Assembly: GCA_030683155.1 (NCBI GenBank)
Contig: JAUXMV010000108.1
Location: 1-64,000 of the forward strand
Reading direction: 5' to 3'
DNA length: 64,000 nucleotides
Source of the DNA: Bacteroidales bacterium
GTDB taxonomy: Bacteria; Bacteroidota; Bacteroidia; Bacteroidales; F082
Shown: one piece after another, positions 7,667-22,549 of the stretch
Layout of the letters: the number at the start of each line of letters is the position of its first letter
Position numbering within the stretch: position 1 is the stretch's first letter
Translations under genes and position numbers: made by a program
Notes under the pieces: generated by a model
Told to the model about the DNA's origin: nothing
The model's input: only the letters and a program-made list of their open reading frames with translations
The model's database searches: none

Positions 7667-7972
7667 CTAGTCAGTTGCCTGTACCGAGTTTACACGATAG
7701 CCAACGGCCAGGATTGCTTCGAGACGGTAAAAGTTGGTGGTATAATTTTTACCATCTGCAGCAGTATGTGCAATTTTTGCACATACTGAATACTCGTCTA
7801 ACTCATTTGTTGCGAATATGTTTTTCAGGTGTTTAGTAACAACAGACCGTTCTGCACTAAACAATTCAGCCATAGTTTTTTGCGTTAGCCAAAAAGTGCC
7901 CTCGCGGAAAAAAACTGAAACATTTACTTTTTTATCCTGTGTGCTGAACAACAATAAGTCGCGTGCTTTCAT
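7667..7972 (-). pseudogene. Truncated RhuM-family gene (N-terminal 101 codons)
   Basis: The product is almost identical to the first 101 residues of the RhuM protein encoded at 9233-9964. Similarity stops abruptly after QATD, where a TAG at 7667 follows. The nearly identical DNA extends upstream of the start as well, so this is a recent duplication broken at its 3' end. It retains the winged-helix-like region (TFWLTQKTMAELFSAERSVVTKHLKNIF) but lacks the rest of the domain. A small DNA-binding product could still be made, but I regard it as a remnant. Confidence 0.8.
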
Positions 7973-9232: not shown

Positions 9233-9964
9233 TTAACTCATTAAAATAGGTTTAAGAATATCGTGGCTGCCTTCGGCAAATAATTTTATGCGGTTAGGCA
9301 CCTCGCTATCGGGATCGGCTTTCCAGGTTTTTAAACCCATATAGAGTTTGGTGGCATCAGCTTCGGAACAAACGATCTCTGCGACGGTTTGGCCTTTAAC
9401 AGCCCAGTGCAGCTTGTTTTGCACTGCAGCAAAAAAGTTTCTGGTTTGTTCGCTGTGCTTGTCATAATCGGTGCTTAGGGCATACAAATCCGTGATTTTC
9501 TGATAAAACCTGCGTTCGCTTACACGGATTTCTCTGATGCGCTCAAGCAATTCATCAAAATAATCCTGTCCGAAGTTTTTGCCTTGTTTTAAGCGATCAT
9601 CATCGATGATAAAACCTTTGATAATAAATTCATTGAGGGTTTGCGTAGCCCATTTACGAAAGTCAGTGGCCTGAACCGAGTTTACGCGATAGCCAACGGC
9701 CAGAATTGCTTCGAGACGATAAAAGTTGGTGGTATAATTTTTGCCATCTGCAGCAGTATGTGCAATTTTTGCACATACTGAATGCTCGTCTAACTCATTG
9801 GTTGCGAATATGTTTTTCAGGTGTTTAGTAATAACAGACCGTTCTGCACTAAACAATTCAGCTGTAGCTTTTTGTGTAAGCCAGAAAGTGCCCTCGCGAA
9901 AAAAAACTGAAACATTTGCTTTTTTATCCTGTGTGCGGAACAACAATAAGTCTCGTGCTTTCAT
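9233..9964 (-). CDS. RhuM-family protein, C-terminally shortened (243 aa)
   Basis: The first 200 residues follow the RhuM pattern (TFWLTQKATAELFSAERSVI, AVGYRVNSVQATDFRKWATQTLNEFIIKGF). After MGLKTWK the sequence changes to an unrelated-looking tail (PDSEVPNRIKLFAEGSHDILKP), where the other two full copies run on for about 100 more residues (RKQDIYISKNYLTADE in the neighbour). The loss is probably a deletion that fused the gene to the spacer before the next RhuM gene. It may still fold as the N-terminal DNA-binding part. It is the parent of the fragment at 7667-7972. Confidence 0.75.
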   Translation of the reverse strand: MKARDLLLFRTQDKKANVSVFFREGTFWLTQKATAELFSAERSVITKHLKNIFATNELDEHSVCAKIAHTAADGKNYTTNFYRLEAILAVGYRVNSVQATDFRKWATQTLNEFIIKGFIIDDDRLKQGKNFGQDYFDELLERIREIRVSERRFYQKITDLYALSTDYDKHSEQTRNFFAAVQNKLHWAVKGQTVAEIVCSEADATKLYMGLKTWKADPDSEVPNRIKLFAEGSHDILKPILMS

Positions 9965-10127: not shown

Positions 10128-13100
10128 TCATTGGTTCTGATTTTTTTTAAAGTTTTCTGCTTGTTCAAAAATCTCAACATATACTTCGTCTCTCTCAACT
10201 GGTGGATAATCAAACTCGTCTAGCAAGAGTATGAGTCCAACTTTTAAAGCCGATTTTATATCCTCTCGCTTGTTCCAGTCAGGGAATTTGGCTTGGCCAT
10301 CAACCAAGTCTTTCACGGCCTTTGCCAGTTCAATCATTATGTCATCGGGATATTTGAAGTCATACTTTACACACAACTCCTTTAGAATATCGTAAAATGC
10401 TTTTTCTTCAAAGTTAATTCCTAATTCATCACCAGCCGAAAATTCTTTGTGTACTTCCCAAATCAGGTCGGTCAAAGCATTGGCCATTTCCTCATACACT
10501 TCACTTCTCAAAATGTCGTTTTCGTCACGTTGGTTATAGCGTTCAACCAATGCTTGCATCTTTTTGGTAAAATCAATGCCTTTCATCCGGTTAACTTTTC
10601 TGAATTCGCCAATCACTTTTGCCAGGAGTTGTTGAAGCAATTTGATTTTGGTATTCGGCAATTTGATTTTATCGATTTTCGCCAAATAATCTTCATCAAA
10701 AATATCCTGTTCGGTTTCATTTTCGTCACCGAGTTTGAAAATCTCCTCCACTCCCTCACTTTGCAAAGCATCTTTTATCATTTCACGAACTTTAGCATTC
10801 ATCTGTGCTGTGTCGGGTGCATTGCCTTTTGTAAGTTTGAAAACGATTGAACGCACAGCCAAATAGAAATGCGTGTAATCTCTTTCGGTTTGTGTTAATT
10901 GTTCACTACCAGCACAAATATCATAAGCGGCTTTTAGTCGTTTTACCAAACCCATAAAACGGGTTTCAAATTCTTTGGTTTTTTGAACAAACTCAGCAGC
11001 AAGATTCAAAGTATTTAACTGCTGAATGGTTGTGCCTTTGAAATATTTTGAGTTATCGAAAGTATGAAAAAGTTTTGCCAACAGGTCTAAATGATTTCTT
11101 ACAATGATGATGGATTCGGCAATGTCTTCAAAATTGTCTTTGTCGCCTTCGCTGTATTGCTTCAGCGCCAGATTCATTTGGTTTTTGATGCCAATATAAT
11201 CCACAACCAAGCCTTTGTTCTTACCCTCAAACTTACGGTTTACGCGTGAAATTGTCTGAATTAAGTTATGGCGTTGAATTGGTTTATCAATGTAAATGCT
11301 ATCTAAGGAAGGAATGTCAAAACCTGTGAGCCACATATCTACCACAATTGCAATTTTGAAATTCGATTTTTCATTTTTGAATTGACGGTCAAGTTCTTTG
11401 CGTTGCTCTTTCGCCCCTAACAAATCATACATTTCTATCGGGTCGTCTTGTCCTCTGGTGGCAATGAGTTTGATTTGGGTGGGGTGAAGCTTCTGGGTGG
11501 AATGTAGCTCCAGCTGCATTCCTCTATATAAGTAAGCAATATGTTCCTTTGGCAAATTAGCTTTTACAGGATTATTCAAAATATACCTTACTGCATTATT
11601 AAAATGCTCCTCATCTCTTATAAATCTATCCCAATATTCAGGCATCCAAAACTGCTTTGCATCCTTGTCAATTCCAAGATTAAACTTTTTGTTGTTTTGT
11701 AATGCCCATTTTCCGGTGAATGATTTCCAAGATTGTACAATTCGGACTAAATCTCCGGTAGTCTTGATTAAAACGTGAACATGGTTTGGCATTATTGACC
11801 AAGCCAACAAATCATACATATCACCTTTGTGATGTAGTAATGCCTCCTGCACTACTTGAGCCATTTCTCTATTTGCTAATGCACAACAGCCTAAGCCTTT
11901 GTCAAGCCAATATTCATACTTTTTTCTTTTTTCAATATCTCGTTTTTCTTCGGAAAGATGTTTAATTTCACTTTCTATTTCTTTCAAAATACTCTGTGGT
12001 AGGCTGTCAGCAATACGAAAAGTAATGGATTGTATAAGTCCTTCTTTATTGCGATGTGGAAGATTTCCTCTGTGCCATTCTTCGGGGTAGCCGAAGTTTT
12101 TGGTGAAATACTGAGCGTAGTTGGTTGTTTCTATTTGCTCGAAGCAGGAGCTTCGAGCCCCTAGATAAGCAATGATGTTTTTATACAACTCATAAGCTAT
12201 TTCACGAGTGCTGCACACAAACATTGCTTTACCTTTTACGGTTGAACCTTCTGAAACTCTTTTCTCATAATGGATTACAAAATCTTCTGCAACTGCTTTT
12301 AAACGGTCAGGGTCGCCAATGATGGCATACATCTGTGCCATTTCTTTTTTGCTCTGCTCAATCTGATTTTCATTGCTGCCAACATCAGCACACTTGGCAT
12401 AATAGTCTTCTATCTCCTTAAGTTTGGCATTATTCAACAACACTTTTGCGGCTCTGCCTTCATACACAATCCTCACAGTGATTTCATCTTTTACCGATTC
12501 CGTCATTGTGTAAGCATCAACCACTTTTCCAAACACATCAAGCGTTGCATCTATTGGTGTTCCCGTGAATCCGACAAAAGTGGCATTGGGTAATGAATCG
12601 TGCAAGTATTTAGCAAAACCATAAGTTTTGGTAACGCCTTTTTCGGTTACTTTCACTTTTTGGTCAAGGTTTACCTGACTCCTATGTGCTTCGTCTGAAA
12701 TACAAATGACATTGGTTCTGTCGGTAAGTAATTCTGTATCTTCTGTAAACTTGTGAATGGTGGTCAAAAACACACCGCCGCTTTGTCTGTCTTGCAGTAG
12801 CTCCCTCAGATTGGCCCGGCTTTCAACACTTACAACTGTATTGTCGCCAATAAAGTTTTTGGCATTGGTAAACTGTCCCGAAAGCTGGTCATCTAAATCT
12901 GTGCGGTCGGTTATCAACACAATGGTCGGACTTTCAAAGTACTCGCTTTTCATCAACAACCTTGTGAGGTAAAGCATAGTGTAGCTCTTTCCGCTGCCCG
13001 TTGCGCCAAAATATGTTCCGCCTTTCCCGTTTCCTGAAGGCTTTTGGGCTTTCTTTATATTATCGAACAAGGCTCTGGCAGCATAGTATTGCGGGTAGCG

Positions 13101-13949
13101 ACAAACAATTTTCTCATTTTTCTTTGATGAGTCAGGAATGTAAATGAAGTTTCTGATAATGTCTCTCAGTATTCTTTGATTAAACATCCCTTGTATCATC
13201 GAGAACATTGAATTAAAGCCATCAGCATCAAGTATTCGCCTGTCCGGCTCGGACCGCCAGGCATAGAAAAATTCGTAGTGTGCAAAAAACGAACCTGCCT
13301 TGTTGTTCACACCATCGCTGATGACGCAAAAGGCATTGTATTTAAATAGTTCCGGAATATCTCTGCGATAACGAACCGTTAATTGCTTGTAAGCATCGTA
13401 AATAGTGGCTTCTTCACGAATGGCACTTTTAAACTCGAACACCACCAACGGTAAACCATTGATATATACTATGCCGTCTGGAATACGTTTTTCTGTTCCG
13501 AAAATTTCCAACTGATTGACAAACTTGTAAATATTGGTATCAATTGAATATTCTTTATCTGGGTGGGCTGCAATTGAAAGCAGTTGATCTGCTTCAGGTT
13601 GACGGTGTTTGTTGAGCCCTGTGTAATTGATTAACTGAATGTAAATATCTTTCTGGCTGCGGTCTTCTCGTTTCAAAATAAAACCATCTGAAAGCATCTT
13701 TATAAATATTTTGTTGCTTTCATAAAGGTCAGAAGCAGGTAGCGATTTGAGCTGAAGAATGATAGATTTGGTTTCGTTTACAGTAATTCCCTGACTGGCG
13801 TATTGCGATAATAGAAAGTTCTGCAAATCTTCTTCTATCAATACTTCATCGGACTTGCGGGCAATGGTAATACCCAAGTGATGGGGAAACCCTTCCTGTT
13901 CCAGCAATTCGGTAAACGCTTTTTCTAATTTTTCTTCGGTGAATTTCAT
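10128..13949 (-). CDS. hsdR: HsdR, type I restriction subunit with an in-frame RAYT domain insertion
   Basis: HsdR is the translocase/nuclease of a type I restriction enzyme. Visible are the N-terminal nuclease (LVVFEFK near residue 170), Walker A GATGSGKS near 313, DEAH (ISDEAHRSQ) near 418, VGFTGTP near 462, and helicase domain 2 (VVDMWLTGFDIPSLD, QTISRVNRKFEGK). The product is 1273 residues against about 1,050 for relatives. The excess, residues about 600-818, is a complete REP-associated tyrosine transposase domain placed just after VCSTREIAYELYKNII of helicase domain 2. The frame stays open throughout. The linker normally seen at this place (about 35 residues) is not recognisable, so some HsdR sequence may have been lost. 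The start overlaps the RhuM stop (ATGA at 13946-13949). Whether the enzyme works is open. Confidence 0.9.
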   Translation of the reverse strand: MKFTEEKLEKAFTELLEQEGFPHHLGITIARKSDEVLIEEDLQNFLLSQYASQGITVNETKSIILQLKSLPASDLYESNKIFIKMLSDGFILKREDRSQKDIYIQLINYTGLNKHRQPEADQLLSIAAHPDKEYSIDTNIYKFVNQLEIFGTEKRIPDGIVYINGLPLVVFEFKSAIREEATIYDAYKQLTVRYRRDIPELFKYNAFCVISDGVNNKAGSFFAHYEFFYAWRSEPDRRILDADGFNSMFSMIQGMFNQRILRDIIRNFIYIPDSSKKNEKIVCRYPQYYAARALFDNIKKAQKPSGNGKGGTYFGATGSGKSYTMLYLTRLLMKSEYFESPTIVLITDRTDLDDQLSGQFTNAKNFIGDNTVVSVESRANLRELLQDRQSGGVFLTTIHKFTEDTELLTDRTNVICISDEAHRSQVNLDQKVKVTEKGVTKTYGFAKYLHDSLPNATFVGFTGTPIDATLDVFGKVVDAYTMTESVKDEITVRIVYEGRAAKVLLNNAKLKEIEDYYAKCADVGSNENQIEQSKKEMAQMYAIIGDPDRLKAVAEDFVIHYEKRVSEGSTVKGKAMFVCSTREIAYELYKNIIAYLGARSSCFEQIETTNYAQYFTKNFGYPEEWHRGNLPHRNKEGLIQSITFRIADSLPQSILKEIESEIKHLSEEKRDIEKRKKYEYWLDKGLGCCALANREMAQVVQEALLHHKGDMYDLLAWSIMPNHVHVLIKTTGDLVRIVQSWKSFTGKWALQNNKKFNLGIDKDAKQFWMPEYWDRFIRDEEHFNNAVRYILNNPVKANLPKEHIAYLYRGMQLELHSTQKLHPTQIKLIATRGQDDPIEMYDLLGAKEQRKELDRQFKNEKSNFKIAIVVDMWLTGFDIPSLDSIYIDKPIQRHNLIQTISRVNRKFEGKNKGLVVDYIGIKNQMNLALKQYSEGDKDNFEDIAESIIIVRNHLDLLAKLFHTFDNSKYFKGTTIQQLNTLNLAAEFVQKTKEFETRFMGLVKRLKAAYDICAGSEQLTQTERDYTHFYLAVRSIVFKLTKGNAPDTAQMNAKVREMIKDALQSEGVEEIFKLGDENETEQDIFDEDYLAKIDKIKLPNTKIKLLQQLLAKVIGEFRKVNRMKGIDFTKKMQALVERYNQRDENDILRSEVYEEMANALTDLIWEVHKEFSAGDELGINFEEKAFYDILKELCVKYDFKYPDDIMIELAKAVKDLVDGQAKFPDWNKREDIKSALKVGLILLLDEFDYPPVERDEVYVEIFEQAENFKKNQNQ
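11499..11522. repeat. REP-like hairpin at the 3' border of the RAYT insert
   Basis: The arms GGAATG/CATTCC and AGCT/AGCT pair around a CC loop, with one T-G position between them. It shares the core AGCTCC(A/T)GCT with the hairpin at the other border, in the opposite orientation, as in paired REPs. It is translated as part of hsdR. Confidence 0.7.
12137..12158. repeat. REP-like hairpin at the 5' border of the RAYT insert
   Basis: A perfect 9-base inverted repeat, GCTCGAAGC/GCTTCGAGC, encloses the 4-base loop AGGA. It encodes residues about 598-605 of the HsdR fusion and marks the point where the sequence leaves the HsdR pattern. Confidence 0.75.
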
Positions 13950-14956
13950 TTCTTAGGTTTCAGCTTTTTAATGTCTTCTTCCAACTCTTTAAGGCTTTGT
14001 TCATTTTCCAATGCTTTCTGAGCCAAGCGGTATTTTTCAAATTCTTCACCTGATTTTTTGAGTGCCATTTCGTGGCTGATTTTGCCTGCATGCTTGAGTA
14101 ACTCCCGGCCGTTCAATTGTAAAATGGCATCAAGCCGCTCAATCCAATCCCTCATGTACATGGGGGTGCGCTGTTGTGCCATAGTTTCTGCAAAGGCCAA
14201 ATACTGTTCCACCAATAGGCCGAGCAATTTTAATTCATCTTCGTTCAGGTAGTTCTTTGCAATGCTTATATCAGATTTTTTTATGGAAACTGCATTTCGC
14301 TTGTCGAATGACTGCATTCCCATTAGCGGCAAACTGGCATCTACTCTCCGAAAAACCAATTCTGCGGCAGTTTTTTGACTGATTGCCCAAAGCAGTTTGT
14401 TCTGTACAACCTTAAAAAATTCTATTGTTTTTTCGTCTTTGGGATCGTAATCTATACTGGTGGTGTAGATGTCTTTAATTTTCTGATAAAAAAAGCGTTC
14501 CGAAATTCGTATTTCCCGAATGCGTTCCTGCAACTCATTGAAATAATTCATGGAGTTGCCTGTCTTAAAACGGTCATCGTTCAAAGCAAAACCCTTGATA
14601 ATGTATTCTTTTAACCGCTGTGTAGCCCAAATTCTAAACTGTGTGCCTTGCGGTGATTTTACTCTGTAACCAACAGAAATAATTACATCAAGATTGTACC
14701 CGTTTACTTCTACATCTTGCGTTTTCCCTGCAATAGCACCATGTTGAGTGGTTGTCCGGAATTTCCGGACAACCACTTTTTCATCTAATTCGCCTTCTTT
14801 AAAGATATTACCAATATGCTCGGATATAGTACGCTTATCTTTACCAAACAATTGCCCCATTTGTGCCTGCGTAAGCCAAACGGTTTCTTCCTCCAACCGC
14901 ACATCTATTTTGATGTTGCCATCAGGGTTTTGATAGATGATTATTTCGCTGTTCAT
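13946..14956 (-). CDS. RhuM-family protein (336 aa)
   Basis: This full-length RhuM protein has an N-terminal winged-helix-like region (TVWLTQAQMGQLFGKDKRTISEHI), the core GYRVKSPQGTQFRIWATQRLKEYIIKGFALNDDRFK, and a charged helical C-terminus ending in LKPKK. Its stop overlaps the hsdR start (ATGA). Its own start overlaps the stop of the hsdR fragment upstream (ATGA at 14953-14956). It is therefore bracketed by two divergent copies of the hsdR 5' end. The function of the family is unknown; the tight coupling to hsdR suggests a role tied to the restriction system. Confidence 0.88.
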   Translation of the reverse strand: MNSEIIIYQNPDGNIKIDVRLEEETVWLTQAQMGQLFGKDKRTISEHIGNIFKEGELDEKVVVRKFRTTTQHGAIAGKTQDVEVNGYNLDVIISVGYRVKSPQGTQFRIWATQRLKEYIIKGFALNDDRFKTGNSMNYFNELQERIREIRISERFFYQKIKDIYTTSIDYDPKDEKTIEFFKVVQNKLLWAISQKTAAELVFRRVDASLPLMGMQSFDKRNAVSIKKSDISIAKNYLNEDELKLLGLLVEQYLAFAETMAQQRTPMYMRDWIERLDAILQLNGRELLKHAGKISHEMALKKSGEEFEKYRLAQKALENEQSLKELEEDIKKLKPKK

Positions 14957-15081
14957 TTTATGTTATTTTTAAATACTTCGTCTGGCTTACGAGTTATCGT
15001 AATGCCCAAATGGTGGGGAAAGCCTTCTTGCCCCAACAACTCGGTAACCGCCTTTTCTAATTTTTCTTCAGTGAATTTCAT
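14953..15081 (-). pseudogene. 5' remnant of a second, divergent hsdR allele (42 codons)
   Basis: The frame starts MKFTEEKLEKAVTELLGQEG and continues FPHHLGITITRKPDEVF before ending NNIK and stop. The intact hsdR begins MKFTEEKLEKAFTELLEQEG and FPHHLGITIARKSDEVL, so the two are clearly homologous. They differ at many third positions and several residues, too much for a fresh duplication. The ATG overlaps the RAYT stop and the stop overlaps the RhuM ATG. I read it as the leftover of an older hsdR displaced when the RhuM-hsdR block arrived by recombination. Confidence 0.8.
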
Positions 15082-16079
15082 TTTTCGTAAAATTTATCCT
15101 CTGCCCATTTTGCAGGATTGTTTATGATATATTCCGAAATTCGTTGGTATGAATGCTCGTTGCGGATAATGTGTTCATGGTAATTACGTTGCCATAATTT
15201 TCCCATCCTTTTATTCTTTGCTTTGTAAATATCCAGACATTCATTCGCCACCAACGACTTATACGCCCCAACAATGTCCCCAACTGTTTGGGCAACCCCG
15301 GTTTGGGCAACCCTCGCGGTTGCCCAATTATCTACTACCGGATTATCCCGTTGGGGCAACCCTCGCGGTTGCCCTGAATTGGTTTGTTGGAAATTTGATT
15401 CCCCGTCTCGCGGTTGCCCTGAACGCTGCTGCCCTAAATTGGTTTGTTCAAAAATCCTTTCCCCGTCATGCGCCTGCCCTGTATTCGTCTGTCCCGAATT
15501 CGGGACAACCGAATCCGTTTGAACGGATATATCGTTTGGTGCAGGGGTAAACCCTGCCCCTACGATTATATCCGTGGGGGTATTTTGGGCAATCCACACG
15601 TTTGCCCTATTATAAACTATCGAATTGGTTTGTTGGAAATTTGATTCCCCGTCATGCGCCTGCCCTGAATCCATTTCCCCTGAATTCATCTGCCCCGAAT
15701 TCGGGACAACCGAATTCGTTTGAACGGATATATCGTTTGGTGCAGGGGTAAACCCTGCACCTACGATTATATCCGTGGGGGTATTTTGGGCAACCGCGAG
15801 GGTTGCCCTGACCAACGCAATAATTCCGTGCATATGGTTGGGCATTATCTGAAACACATCTAATTGCATATTTGGAAATCGTTCGGATAATTTCATCCAT
15901 TCATTGTATGCAATTTGTCCAAATTCATTCAGCACCATTTCACCTTTTACAACCTGACCAAAACGGCTGGCCCTATCCTGACAGCATATCGTAATAAAAT
16001 ACAACCCGGCACGCGAATAATCATAACCTTTCAGGCGGATGGACCTGCGGTGGTGGATGTTTGGGTTGTATTGGTTCAT
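15078..16079 (-). CDS. REP-associated tyrosine transposase (RAYT) with REP-like repeats inside its frame
   Basis: The start at 16079 gives MNQYNPNIHHRRSIRLKGYD, the usual beginning of this family; the frame is open further upstream but would overlap the previous gene. The HUH motif is in QIMPNHMHGII (about residues 77-86). The partner tyrosine lies in the region RISEYIINNPAKW (about 312-323). Between them, residues about 88-260 consist of low-complexity repeats (IIVGAGFTPAPNDISVQT twice, NSGQ and QPRG runs) encoded by hairpins and duplicated DNA. Family members without this insert are about 150-200 residues long. RAYTs nick and mobilise REP palindromes. The stop overlaps the hsdR remnant start. 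Activity is uncertain because of the insert. Confidence 0.82.
   Translation of the reverse strand: MNQYNPNIHHRRSIRLKGYDYSRAGLYFITICCQDRASRFGQVVKGEMVLNEFGQIAYNEWMKLSERFPNMQLDVFQIMPNHMHGIIALVRATLAVAQNTPTDIIVGAGFTPAPNDISVQTNSVVPNSGQMNSGEMDSGQAHDGESNFQQTNSIVYNRANVWIAQNTPTDIIVGAGFTPAPNDISVQTDSVVPNSGQTNTGQAHDGERIFEQTNLGQQRSGQPRDGESNFQQTNSGQPRGLPQRDNPVVDNWATARVAQTGVAQTVGDIVGAYKSLVANECLDIYKAKNKRMGKLWQRNYHEHIIRNEHSYQRISEYIINNPAKWAEDKFYEK
15305..15374. repeat. Two REP-like hairpins inside the RAYT gene
   Basis: Identical stem-loops with arms GGGCAACC/GGTTGCCC and loop CTCGC lie at 15305-15325 and 15354-15374. Both are perfect 8-base stems and both are translated as part of the transposase. Confidence 0.85.
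15437..15810. repeat. Imperfect direct repeat of about 180 bp with several palindromes
   Basis: The segment 15437-15616 is repeated at 15623-15810. Each unit carries the palindrome CCCGAATTCGGG (15493-15504 and 15694-15705) and a GCAGGG/CCCTGC hairpin with loop GTAAA (15541-15557 and 15742-15758). A further partial unit starts at 15376. The array keeps the transposase frame open. Confidence 0.85.
15788..15808. repeat. REP-like hairpin in inverted orientation
   Basis: The arms are the same GGGCAACC/GGTTGCCC as in the two hairpins near 15305, but the loop is GCGAG, the reverse complement of CTCGC. The element is therefore inverted relative to those two, giving the opposed pairing typical of BIME structures. 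Confidence 0.85.
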
Positions 16080-16114
16080 TTTGGGTTTTATAAATTTTAT
16101 TCGATGAATTTCAT

Positions 16115-16672
16115 CTAAATATTGATTAGTATTATCCACTTTCCCCTGGTACTACCATCTCTTTTAATTGCACCTTTTTCTTTCAATGCCTTTATATGAT
16201 CGCCAACCGCAGATTCATTAATAGAAAGTTCTTTCGCAATAGCTTTATAAGACGCTTTATTATTCTCTTTGATAATAGTAAGAACGTCTTTTTGCCTATC
16301 TGTTAAAGAATCTATTACACCACCTATTACACCACCTATTACACTACCTATTACACCACCATCTTGACCACCTATTACACCACCATCATCATCACCTTGA
16401 GGAGCTTTATAAAGAACAACCATAAAACCACCATCTTTTTCCATAATATCAGGCTCAGGAAGTCCATGTTCTTTACATGAATTATATATCTTAAGCGTTC
16501 CTCGTCCCCATGCATCAATATATCCGGCCATGAAACAGGCTTTTGCTATTTTAGGATTACGTGGTCGGGAGTTGTGCTCGCCTTTTAATTCTACCAAAGT
16601 TGAACCACAAAAACCATTCAGGTAGTCATCGTGCCAGCTTTGCTTATATTCTATATTTTGTTGTTCGGGCAT
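16115..16672 (-). CDS. Internally deleted AlbA_2/HATPase-type transcriptional regulator (RecG-like)
   Basis: The ATG at 16672 gives MPEQQNIEYKQSWHDDYL, the typical beginning of AlbA_2 (Schlafen-like) regulators. It then jumps directly to LKGEHNSRPRNPKIAKACFM and AGYIDAWGRGTLKI, the C-terminal part of the ATP-binding domain. About 300 residues usually found between are missing, in frame. A Gly-Gly-Val-Ile repeat linker and a winged helix (TDRQKDVLTIIKENNKASYKAIAKEL) follow, both normal for the family. Intact relatives occur in type I restriction loci. The remaining 185-residue protein keeps a DNA-binding C-terminus but not a complete sensor domain, so it may be decaying or a reduced repressor. 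Confidence 0.7.
   Translation of the reverse strand: MPEQQNIEYKQSWHDDYLNGFCGSTLVELKGEHNSRPRNPKIAKACFMAGYIDAWGRGTLKIYNSCKEHGLPEPDIMEKDGGFMVVLYKAPQGDDDGGVIGGQDGGVIGSVIGGVIGGVIDSLTDRQKDVLTIIKENNKASYKAIAKELSINESAVGDHIKALKEKGAIKRDGSTRGKWIILINI
16311..16390. repeat. 12-bp tandem-type repeat encoding a GGVI linker
   Basis: Units of ACCTATTACACC, some interrupted or altered, recur five to six times. In the gene they encode repeats of Gly-Gly-Val-Ile joining the ATP-binding remnant to the winged helix. Such arrays can vary in length by slippage without changing the frame. Confidence 0.75.
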
Positions 16673-18935: not shown

Positions 18936-20069
18936 TTAATTTTCTACTGCCGCCAACTTAGAAAGAAGCAAGTCTTTCAATTCCATTAGATTTTGGTTTT
19001 CATTAGATTTCAATCTTACATTCTCAAAAATTGGTTTGGCTGTTTTATCAAACTTTTCCATTTGTTCCGTATTGACTTTGGGAAGCAGAAATTCTTCGAG
19101 ATACTTTTCGTGAACCCTTTGTCTACCCGATGATCCAATCATACTGCTGATTGCATATGATCGGAAACCCTGGTCTTTGGCTAAACAATATACCCAAAAC
19201 GGACTTACTTTCCTCTTAGCTCTCATTACAATAAATTCCGTTGAGCCCGCTGCTACTTCATTTTCTTCAAGATTGTTAACGAACCCAGTTTTTCCGTTTT
19301 CTAAACAAGGTGTTATTCGTGCAAGTAGGGTATCATTATTTCGAAATCTTGAACCTCCTTGATATTCTCTTTTAACTTTCCCATTGATACACATTGATAT
19401 CTCCGAAAGGTTTGCCATTTCGATGTAGTTGGATAACATTCCCTTTTTTAATTCAAGTCTTGGATTAGTTTCAATATATTCCTTAAGAAAAACTTTATCA
19501 TCAGTTTCAAACTCTACAAACCACTCCCTATAAATCGCCTGTGCGGTTTCTTCCAGTTTTTGTATCAGCTGCTGGTTAAGGGCAATGCGGTTTTGGATAA
19601 CGTTGTATTCTTTTACAATTTCTCGTTGTTTGGTGATGGAAGGAATGGGTAAAAGTGTGTTGCACATTTCGTCCCAATCAAAAATTTCTCTGGCACTTCC
19701 GTGGCTTTTAAATCGTGCGTAGCGGTCAAATTCCGGCCGGCGAAACCACATCATTAAATATTCGGGGTCGAGTTCGATGTTGTCTTTAACTTCAAAAGGA
19801 ATATAAGCCTGAGAAATTAAAGCTTTATCAAAATCATTGAACAAGGCTATGGTAATTTTATCGCCATTCCTTGAAGTTACAGGACCATAAGCAAACTGAT
19901 TTTTTTCAATGATTCTATATGTTGACATATCCGTTCCAATGGTATTGGCTATGGAAGGGATAAACTTTTTTTGAATACTTAAACCCACCAAAGGCAAATC
20001 GCCCAAGTCATTATTTCTCCCAACTACGGGCTGAATGTATTTGCCCAATCTTTTATAGTGCTTTCTCAT
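18936..20069 (-). CDS. hsdS: HsdS, DNA specificity subunit of the type I restriction system
   Basis: HsdS recognises the bipartite target and scaffolds HsdM and HsdR. The 377-residue product has two target-recognition domains separated and followed by long helical conserved regions (TKQREIVKEYNVIQNRIALNQ, KLEETAQAIYREWFVEFE). TRD1 occupies about residues 1-150 and TRD2 about 210-340. The start overlaps the ORF6N-gene stop (ATGA), supporting co-translation. The two recognition domains differ from each other, so the recognised site should be asymmetric. It cannot be predicted from sequence alone. Confidence 0.92.
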   Translation of the reverse strand: MRKHYKRLGKYIQPVVGRNNDLGDLPLVGLSIQKKFIPSIANTIGTDMSTYRIIEKNQFAYGPVTSRNGDKITIALFNDFDKALISQAYIPFEVKDNIELDPEYLMMWFRRPEFDRYARFKSHGSAREIFDWDEMCNTLLPIPSITKQREIVKEYNVIQNRIALNQQLIQKLEETAQAIYREWFVEFETDDKVFLKEYIETNPRLELKKGMLSNYIEMANLSEISMCINGKVKREYQGGSRFRNNDTLLARITPCLENGKTGFVNNLEENEVAAGSTEFIVMRAKRKVSPFWVYCLAKDQGFRSYAISSMIGSSGRQRVHEKYLEEFLLPKVNTEQMEKFDKTAKPIFENVRLKSNENQNLMELKDLLLSKLAAVEN

Positions 20070-20977: not shown

Positions 20978-22549
20978 CTATTCATTATTTAAATCAAGGG
21001 TAATTGGGAATCCCAATTCTTTAAATACGTTTAGTAAATCATTTTTGCTCTGTGCTTCAGCTTTCAGTAGTTCGGCAAACTCACTTTGCAGGTTTTGCAT
21101 TTTTTCGTCAAAATCAATATTCTCATCACGGTTTACAAACTCAATGTATTTGCTTGGTACCAACGAAAAATCTTTTTTGGCTACTTCTTCAAACAAAGCG
21201 GAATAACAGAACTCAGGAATGTTTTCAATTTCCTTGTTTTGCCATTGATGGTAAGTGCTTGTTACTTTTTTAATATCATCATCAGAAAACTGGGTGTATT
21301 TCTTTTCAAATGGTTCGCCCAACTGTCGCAAATCCATAAACAGAATTTCTTTTTCACGTTCACGGTATTGGCGTTTTTCATCGCCAATGCTTCGGCTTTG
21401 TGCTTTTTTGTTTTTATTCAGAATCCAAAGCGTAACACTTATATCGGTGGTATAAAACAAATTGCGTGGCAATACCAAAATGGCTTCCACCAGATTATTT
21501 TCAATCAGCTTTCTGCGTATTTTGTATTCTTCGCCACCACCACTCAATGCACCGTTGGCCAGAATAAAACCTGCAATTCCATTTTCTGAAAGTTTAGAAA
21601 CCATATTCAAAATCCAACCATAATTGGCGTTGCTTTTGGGTGGCACATCATAACCTCTCCAGCGTGGGTCGTTGATCAATTCATTTTCTGCCCGCCAGTC
21701 TTTTTGATTAAAAGGCGGATTGGCCATGATGTAATCGGCTTTCAGGTCTTTGTGTTGGTCATCGCCAAAAGTGTCTGCTGCTTTTTCGCCCAGATTACCG
21801 CTTATGCCGCGTATGGCTAGGTTCATCTTAGCCAGTTTGTAAGTGGTGTTGGTGTATTCCTGTCCGTAAATAGAAATTTCTTTTTTGTTGCCGTGATGGG
21901 CTTCAATAAACTTAATGGATTGAACAAACATACCACCCGAACCACAAGCAGGGTCATAGATGATGCCTTTGTAAGGTTCAATCATTTCGGCGATCAGGTT
22001 TACAATGCTTTTTGGCGTGTAAAACTCTCCTTTGCCTTTTCCTTCAGCCAATGCAAATTTTGAAAGGAAGTATTCATATACCTTGCCCACCACATCGTGT
22101 TTGGGGTCTTTGGTGGTGTCAATGTCGTTGATGGTATCGAGCAGCGAAGCAAGTTTGGTCACATCCAAACCCAAACGGGAGAAATAATTATCGGGCAAAG
22201 CACCTTTTAGAGCTTTGTTGTTTTTCTCGATGGTATGCAGTGCGGTATCAATGAGCAGTGCAATGTCGTTTTGCTTCGATTTTTTGATCAGGTAACTCCA
22301 ACGGCTGCTCTCTTCCAAAAAGAACACATTGTTCATATTGTAGAAGTCGGCCATTTCAATGTATTTTTCTTTGCCTTCGGCAATCAGTTTGGCTCTGTGT
22401 TCTTCAAACTTGTCGCTGGCAAACTTCAGGAAAATCAGTCCCAGCACAACGTGCTTATATTCGGCTGGTTCAACACTGCCTCTCAGTTTATTTGCTGCTT
22501 CCCAAAGGGTTACTTCAATTGCTTTTTCTTTTATTTCTTTTTTTGCCAT
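20978..22549 (-). CDS. hsdM: HsdM, adenine-N6 methyltransferase of the type I restriction system
   Basis: HsdM methylates adenines in the site recognised by HsdS, protecting host DNA, and forms the core of the restriction complex. The 523-residue protein has the HsdM N-terminal helical domain (LWEAANKLRGSVEPAEYKHV), the SAM-binding motif I YDPACGSGGMFVQS near residue 200, and the catalytic motif IV ANPPFNQKDW near 275. It is the first gene of the block and is followed within 3 bases by the ORF6N gene. The length is normal and no defect is visible. Confidence 0.95.
   Translation of the reverse strand: MAKKEIKEKAIEVTLWEAANKLRGSVEPAEYKHVVLGLIFLKFASDKFEEHRAKLIAEGKEKYIEMADFYNMNNVFFLEESSRWSYLIKKSKQNDIALLIDTALHTIEKNNKALKGALPDNYFSRLGLDVTKLASLLDTINDIDTTKDPKHDVVGKVYEYFLSKFALAEGKGKGEFYTPKSIVNLIAEMIEPYKGIIYDPACGSGGMFVQSIKFIEAHHGNKKEISIYGQEYTNTTYKLAKMNLAIRGISGNLGEKAADTFGDDQHKDLKADYIMANPPFNQKDWRAENELINDPRWRGYDVPPKSNANYGWILNMVSKLSENGIAGFILANGALSGGGEEYKIRRKLIENNLVEAILVLPRNLFYTTDISVTLWILNKNKKAQSRSIGDEKRQYREREKEILFMDLRQLGEPFEKKYTQFSDDDIKKVTSTYHQWQNKEIENIPEFCYSALFEEVAKKDFSLVPSKYIEFVNRDENIDFDEKMQNLQSEFAELLKAEAQSKNDLLNVFKELGFPITLDLNNE

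What the first reader, a model, noticed from the sequence alone, without database searches (positions are those of the whole stretch)
10128..13949. Type I restriction subunit HsdR carrying a complete RAYT transposase domain in frame
The frame reads through HsdR helicase domain 1, then a full REP-associated tyrosine transposase with intact HUH (MPNHVHVL) and tyrosine (YILNNPVKANL) motifs, then back into HsdR helicase domain 2. It is a single 1273-codon gene with no stop or frameshift. The insertion lies after YELYKNII and replaces or follows a variable linker. A selfish nuclease domain living in frame inside an anti-phage enzyme is unusual. It could be a tolerated insertion, a domesticated nickase, or a dead HsdR.
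Basis: partly seen in the sequence, partly recalled or inferred. Interest (0 to 1): 0.85.

Follow-up and report, generated by a model that had tools for sequence, protein, structure and literature searches.

The report
Transposase nested inside restriction enzyme
A gene for a bacterial DNA-cutting defence enzyme carries a whole, well-preserved jumping-gene enzyme inside its own protein, and the same trick recurs in several kinds of defence enzyme, which suggests either a new mobile element hidden inside defence genes or a new working part of them.

Summary
Window 10128-13949(-) is one 1273-codon hsdR; residues 594-825 are a RAYT (HUH single-tyrosine transposase) in place of a 31-residue linker inside helicase domain 2. 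It is not an artefact: the same fusion at the same linker is open in 10 of 11 other loci not cut by a contig end, isolates included. Catalytic motifs of both enzymes are present, and the RAYT is under purifying selection (dN/dS 0.04-0.14 where measurable). Two hairpins, translated in frame, flank it; they are among the best codon-conserved stretches of the gene and covary: a REPtron written in codons. Their core is absent from 12 of 12 full-length RAYT-less relatives and not dispersed in carrier genomes. On the HsdR tree the RAYT state needs 9 changes, 7 forced. RAYTs are nested in frame in three further R-M architectures of Bacteroidota. Best reading: a REPtron confined to R-M genes, kept because its nuclease works, probably spreading between hsdR alleles in a homing-like way. 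A domesticated role in restriction is the main rival. My searches found no published description.

The parts
10128..13949 (-). hsdR with nested RAYT, one 1273-codon gene
11475..12170 (-). Insert (residues 594-825) in place of a 31-residue linker of helicase domain 2
   Evidence: comparison with RAYT-less relatives
11544..12080 (-). RAYT core (match of a nine-RAYT profile)
   Evidence: fold
11769..11792 (-). HUH motif MPNHVHVL
   Evidence: sequence; conserved in 11 of 11 fused genes
11568..11585 (-). Catalytic tyrosine motif YILNNP
   Evidence: sequence
12137..12158 (-). Left end hairpin, 9-bp arms, read in frame as ARSSCFEQ
   Evidence: codon conservation; covariation
11499..11522 (-). Right end hairpin GGAATGCAGCTGGAGCTACATTCC (imperfect); a remnant GAAGCTTC of the usual right hairpin lies at 11486-11493
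   Evidence: sequence
18936..20069 (-). hsdS of the same R-M locus
   Evidence: Methylase_S
20978..22549 (-). hsdM of the same R-M locus
   Evidence: N6_Mtase and HsdM_N

Best explanation
This is a REPtron (a RAYT gene bounded by two REP-type hairpins) sitting in frame inside hsdR, so that transposase, hairpin ends and restriction motor are translated as one protein. SHOWN: one open frame; RAYT fold and catalytic motifs; placement inside helicase domain 2; hairpins at both ends inside the coding sequence, conserved at the nucleotide level and covarying; RAYT under purifying selection; the same arrangement in other Bacteroidota; presence and absence scattered over the HsdR tree at one identical site; extra hairpin pairs in a second HsdR linker; no dispersed hairpin population in carrier genomes. 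INFERRED: the HsdR-RAYT fusion still nicks and joins single strands at its own hairpins; this lets the RAYT-bearing linker enter RAYT-less hsdR alleles (homing-like, helped by recombination across the conserved flanks) and leaves RAYT-less hairpin pairs in other linkers of the same R-M genes. It persists because it lies in loops that large R-M enzymes tolerate, because stops and frameshifts are removed by selection for HsdR, and because R-M operons themselves move between genomes.
For: Same fusion at the same linker, open in 10 of 11 loci not cut by a contig end. RAYT dN/dS 0.04-0.14 where dS is measurable; mean pS 0.74, mean pN 0.17. Left hairpin is the strongest codon-conservation peak of the gene (z 4.75 of 1223 windows), right end the next distinct one (z 3.35); left stays first in 4 of 4 sequence sets. 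Hairpin pairing 94.2% against 74.1% shuffled, 20 double-sided changes against 5.6, 0 of 500 shuffles as high. Core hairpin in 0 of 12 full-length RAYT-less genes; a second hairpin pair in the nuclease-helicase linker in 5 of 11 fused genes by exact core. Of 15 near-core hits in 12 carrier genomes, 12 lie in the fused hsdR. Fused state needs 9 changes on the HsdR tree, 7 forced by supported branches; the window's nearest relative, 95% identical, is RAYT-less. In G383 and G356, 14 of 14 exact hairpins lie in hsdR or hsdM of one operon. L071/L072: RAYT dS 0.42 against 0.90 and 1.31 for HsdR.
Against: RAYT and HsdR distances correlate among fused genes (Mantel r 0.65, p 0.0002) and their trees broadly agree, so most RAYTs have travelled with their HsdR; scattered absence may be loss by recombination with empty alleles. 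No breakpoint of transfer was seen. Without L079-L081 the right hairpin is not among the top five conservation peaks, and the window's own right hairpin is imperfect. Three of the 15 near-core hits lie outside hsdR. No mobility or activity was observed, and one isolate (L074) has a stop in the RAYT.
Confidence: 0.5

Rival explanations
1. Domesticated accessory domain: the RAYT has become a working part of the restriction motor, for example cutting single-stranded or hairpin DNA produced while HsdR translocates, or binding the hairpins in its own DNA or mRNA to regulate itself. Fused and unfused HsdR are two long-lived alleles exchanged by ordinary recombination.
For: Purifying selection on the RAYT, catalytic motifs kept in 11 of 11 fused genes, correlated RAYT and HsdR divergence, no dispersed hairpins, recurrence in several R-M enzyme types.
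Against: Nucleotide-level conservation and covariation of the ends and extra in-frame hairpin pairs look like a mobile element's substrate; close relatives manage without the RAYT.
Confidence: 0.33
2. Inert passenger: an old in-frame insertion that HsdR tolerates, with no present activity.
For: It lies in a loop position that is only a short linker in relatives; the window's right hairpin is degenerate.
Against: pN 0.17 against near-saturated pS 0.74 in the RAYT; the hairpin codons are conserved.
Confidence: 0.1
3. Assembly or sequencing chimera.
For: The window's genome is a draft of 111 contigs.
Against: The same junctions occur in independently sequenced isolates and MAGs.
Confidence: 0.01

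Closest known systems
REPtron / RAYT (TnpA_REP, TnpA_Y1 class 2; PMC6006769: abstract, outline, section 31 and passages read)
   Same: HUH motif, single Tyr with Y..NP context, fold of 4er8, gene bounded by hairpins in opposite orientation
   Different: No gene of its own: nested in frame in an R-M enzyme; hairpins are translated and confined to the R-M gene or operon, not extragenic and dispersed
Type I restriction subunit HsdR (EcoR124I-like; TIGR00348, PADLOC REase_I)
   Same: All HsdR domains and motifs, hsdM and hsdS beside it
   Different: A 232-residue RAYT-bearing insert in helicase domain 2
Rickettsia palindromic elements (PMC10969869: passages read)
   Same: Mobile palindromic DNA that is read in frame inside protein genes
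   Different: As described there, about 150 bp and in unrelated metabolic genes; here hairpins come with a full transposase and sit in R-M genes
Inteins and homing-endonuclease genes (recalled)
   Same: A nuclease in frame at one fixed site of a conserved protein, with patchy presence
   Different: No splicing or homing-endonuclease domain found; a HUH transposase; no sign that it is removed from the protein
IS200/IS605 TnpA (solved structures 2a6m, 2vju, 2xma and others)
   Same: HUH-Tyr fold (Z 10-12), hairpin ends
   Different: Class-2 Y..NP tyrosine context, one copy in the genome, nested in a host gene

Membership tests
Type I HsdR | Nuclease, SWI2/SNF2 helicase, domain 3 and C-terminal domain in one chain | tested here: met
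   Pfam and NCBIfam; PADLOC REase_I
Type I HsdR | Nuclease and helicase motifs intact | tested here: met
Type I HsdR | hsdM and hsdS in the same locus | tested here: met
Type I HsdR | Restricts DNA | not testable with these tools
   needs a phage plating test
RAYT (TnpA_REP) | HUH motif and single catalytic Tyr with Y..NP context | tested here: met
   sequence
RAYT (TnpA_REP) | Fold of a RAYT | tested here: met
   4er8 best match, Z 14.2
RAYT (TnpA_REP) | Curated score of NCBIfam NF047646 reached | tested here: not met
   71.1 bits against 80; Pfam Y1_Tnp cut-off is reached. I therefore call it RAYT-like by motif and fold
REPtron | Transposase bounded by hairpins | tested here: met
REPtron | Cognate REPs dispersed in extragenic DNA of the genome | tested here: not met
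   no dispersed copies of the core in the genomes searched. It has a REPtron's layout but not its REP population
REPtron | Transposase cleaves its REP | not testable with these tools
   biochemistry needed
Intein / homing-endonuclease gene | Splicing or homing-endonuclease domain | tested here: not met
   no such family among the hits (E up to 0.01)
Rickettsia palindromic element | Palindromic DNA read in frame within genes | tested here: met
   sequence relation to the Rickettsia elements not tested, so a likeness in working, not membership

The most novel reading that the evidence does not exclude
A class of mobile element that lives as an in-frame domain of restriction-modification enzymes: a RAYT plus protein-coding hairpin ends, confined to the R-M operon that carries it, inserting into permissive linkers of HsdR, HsdM and Type IIG enzymes and homing between alleles by single-strand chemistry, with the restriction enzyme itself as the transposase.
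Probability: 0.4. Interest if true: 0.92.

Novelty: new variant of a known kind. Interest (0 to 1): 0.82.

Why it matters
Mobile elements normally avoid genes or break them. Here a transposase and its DNA ends are kept readable inside an anti-phage enzyme, and this recurs in several enzyme types. If it is mobile, it is a selfish element whose vehicle is immunity itself; if domesticated, it adds a single-strand nuclease to restriction motors. Either way it gives a defined system in which to ask what RAYTs do for themselves or their hosts, a question that the passages read of PMC8266576 and PMC6006769 leave open.

Tried and rejected
Looked for this RAYT on plasmids and phages: one weak plasmid RAYT (31.7% identity, E 3e-17, limit 1e-8), none in phages, none in viral contigs (that scan uses two short peptide patterns). 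Looked for a dispersed REP population: none found. Considered an intein-like element (no such domain) and a chimera (rejected). Asked whether RAYT nesting is limited to R-M genes: in the nine-RAYT search of 395 genomes the 33 best, near full-length rows include 6 in frames of 1000 aa or more, and these 6 are R-M enzymes (Pfam on the window, G356, G383, G449 and G313 genes; G301 by reading). Counter-example among the weaker rows listed: G487, a different RAYT fused end to end with coproporphyrinogen oxidase, so in-frame RAYT fusions outside R-M genes exist, although this one is not nested. The list was cut off; unlisted weak matches were not examined. A 574-aa frame (L110) looked like a stand-alone RAYT with a non-coding open stretch before it (by eye). 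Local identity profiles gave no clear recombination breakpoint.

Rows dropped. HsdR tree: 11 of 44 sequences could not be split by my pattern and were left out, L074 among them. Three of its 14 fused rows repeat others (L043=L075, L044=L079, L115=L073) and were removed. L082 is cut by a contig end and was not used. Hairpin alignment: 8 left ends, 2 right ends, 3 from the second linker; the less perfect right ends of the window, L071, L072, L073, L075, L076 and L078 were not put in, which favours pairing; identical hairpins went in once. One search did not read 3 of 20 loci (L133, L137, L143). The scan used two short peptide patterns, so more carriers may exist.
Full report
THE OBJECT. The frame 10128..13949(-) encodes 1273 residues without a stop. 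Pfam and NCBIfam see an HsdR with all its domains, interrupted by an IS200-like/RAYT domain. A RAYT-less relative (L111) reads YKNIIALKPEWNEIRAAEEGAELTDKDKRELKPIERIKLIATRG where the window reads YKNIIA-[RAYT]-HPTQIKLIATRG; the insert is residues 594-825 and stands where 18 of 19 RAYT-less relatives have a 31-residue linker (one has 39). A model of residues 225-960 is weak overall (mean pLDDT 65.9; the RAYT part mostly 70-88) and puts the RAYT between a helix and a strand of helicase domain 2; Foldseek finds EcoR124I HsdR and the RAYT 4er8 in the same model, with low whole-model TM-scores. Modelled alone, the RAYT reaches pLDDT 85.3 and matches 4er8 at Z 14.2. hsdS and hsdM lie upstream on the same strand, with ORF6N, AAA_13, winged-helix and RhuM genes and a second RAYT-like gene between (the second RAYT, 15078-16139, had no Pfam hit and is identified by eye).

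NOT AN ARTEFACT, AND OLD. A search of 173 genomes of the family found two other genera with a 79% and a 68% identical RAYT in frames of 1292 and 1277 aa, the same fusion. A pattern scan of the named-genome collection gave 12 loci, among them isolates of Aquiflexum lacus, Aquiflexum sp., Cognataquiflexum nitidum and Marinilabilia salmonicolor and MAGs titled Chitinophagales, Cyclobacteriaceae and Prolixibacteraceae. Of the 11 not cut by a contig end, 10 are open over 1276-1312 aa and one (Cognataquiflexum) has a single TAA in the RAYT. It is a minority form: among 16 rows for close HsdRs in 395 Bacteroidia genomes, 2 frames (the window and G301) are of fused size. Among 11 distinct fused genes, mean pS is 0.74 in the RAYT and 0.76 and 0.77 in the two HsdR parts, mean pN 0.17 against 0.14 and 0.10; dN/dS of the RAYT is 0.04-0.14 in pairs where dS can be computed, many pairs being saturated. 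Helicase, HUH and Tyr motifs are present in 11 of 11, the nuclease motif in 9 of 11 by pattern and in the other two by eye.

HAIRPIN ENDS WRITTEN IN CODONS. Both ends of the insert are DNA hairpins translated in frame, most often like CTCGAAGC-TCCN-GCTTCGAG on the left and GATGAAGC-AGGA-GCTTCATC on the right, with loops in opposite orientation; several right ends, the window's included, are imperfect. Corrected for amino-acid make-up, the left hairpin is the most codon-conserved stretch of the gene (z 4.75 of 1223 windows) and the right end the next distinct one (z 3.35). In four sequence sets the left is always first; the right is second, second, third, and absent from the top five without L079-L081. 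Across 13 distinct hairpins pairing is kept through double-sided changes: 94.2% of cells paired against 74.1% in shuffles, 20 double changes against 5.6, 0 of 500 shuffles as high. Five of these 13 rows were picked as hairpins and less perfect right ends were not put in, which favours pairing; the 8 left rows are defined by position. A second hairpin pair without RAYT sits in frame in the linker between nuclease and helicase in 5 of 11 fused genes by exact core, a sixth (L072) being recognisable by its peptide; the core occurs in 0 of 12 full-length RAYT-less genes. In 12 carrier genomes a near-core search (up to one mismatch) gave 15 hits, 0-3 a genome: 12 lie in the fused hsdR and 3, each with one mismatch, elsewhere (G000, G574, G575; places compared with the locus ranges); the backward control gave 3.

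GAIN AND LOSS. On a tree of the HsdR part alone (33 rows) the fused state needs 9 changes, 7 forced by well-supported branches; the window's nearest relative, 95% identical, is RAYT-less. Yet RAYT and HsdR distances of fused genes correlate (Mantel r 0.65, p 0.0002) and their trees broadly agree. So the RAYT is an old companion of this HsdR that has often been lost or regained at one site; the data do not separate loss by recombination with empty alleles from homing-like regain. The pair L071/L072, with RAYT dS 0.42 against 0.90 and 1.31 for HsdR, hints at regain.

NOT A ONE-OFF. RAYTs are nested in frame in three other R-M architectures. (a) Another HsdR group, between nuclease and helicase (G356, G383): in these two genomes the hairpin GGCGGACC-NNNN-GGTCCGCC, read as GGPPGPP or GGPGGPP, occurs at 14 sites, 10 in hsdR and 4 in the methyltransferase gene of the same locus (hsdM confirmed by Pfam in G383, and by likeness in G356). 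(b) Type IIG enzymes, before methyltransferase motif I (G032, G449, G313), again with in-frame hairpins near the ends. (c) Eco57I/MmeI-like Type IIG enzymes, inside the Eco57I domain, with a more distant RAYT. In 173 genomes this last type gave 23 match rows in 21 places: 11 in frames of 1026-1427 aa, 6 in 537-825 aa, 4 in 207-363 aa. Of 17 loci that a script could read, 15 (two of them one gene) show methyltransferase motif I in the same frame and 2 are stand-alone. In 395 Bacteroidia genomes 6 of the 33 best, near full-length matches of a nine-RAYT profile lie in frames of 1000 aa or more, and these 6 are R-M genes. One RAYT of another type is fused end to end with coproporphyrinogen oxidase, so R-M genes are not the only partners.

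HOW IT PROBABLY WORKS. Shown: anatomy, predicted fold, selection on protein and hairpins, confinement, patchiness. Inferred: single-strand cleavage and joining at its own hairpins by the HsdR-RAYT fusion, spread between hsdR alleles, and leaving of RAYT-less hairpin pairs in linkers of the same genes. I give this about 0.5, a domesticated role in restriction or autoregulation about 0.33, an inert passenger about 0.1.

PRIOR WORK. Ten searches of an open PMC library (listings with titles and abstract openings seen) listed no paper whose title or abstract opening describes a RAYT inside a restriction enzyme; subscription papers and preprints are not covered. PMC6006769 (abstract, outline, section 31 and passages; [quoted passage not shown] PMC8266576 (passages) says E. 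coli TnpA_REP processes single-stranded REP in vitro. PMC10969869 (passages) describes Rickettsia palindromic elements in frame in genes. PMC3874165, a review of Type I enzymes, has no occurrence of 'transposase' in its main text.

Noticed in passing
window 14747-14777, 7762-7788, 9754-9780: RhuM-family genes carry an in-frame DNA palindrome (arms 7-15 bp) at one fixed place (KVVVRKFRTTT, SVCAKIAHTA and others); 7 of 8 distinct RhuM-like frames in the fetched loci have one, with differing arms. It may be another protein-coding palindrome under DNA-level selection.
   Followed up: partly
window 15078-16139: A second, stand-alone RAYT-like gene of another type (MPNHMH), with repeats (VGAGFTPAPN and others) inside its own frame, like subclass 2.4 of PMC6006769, where REPs within the transposase gene are described. 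No Pfam hit.
   Followed up: no
window 7667-7972 and 9233-9964: Two near-identical starts of a RhuM gene, one of them a short fragment, suggesting a recent local duplication next to hsdR.
   Followed up: no
L148:11167-11216 (G383), L149:9872-9921 (G356): The hairpin pair of the nested RAYT also sits in frame in the methyltransferase gene (hsdM) of the same locus.
   Followed up: partly
L164:1502-3160 (G487): A different RAYT-like protein joined end to end, in one open frame, with coproporphyrinogen III oxidase.
   Followed up: no
L150:534-4574 (G117): The RAYT inside this Type IIG enzyme itself holds an in-frame array of repeats (TTENPVGTTAVA), an insertion within the insertion.
   Followed up: no
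L074:4139-4141 (Cognataquiflexum nitidum): The fused hsdR of this isolate has a single in-frame stop within the RAYT.
   Followed up: no
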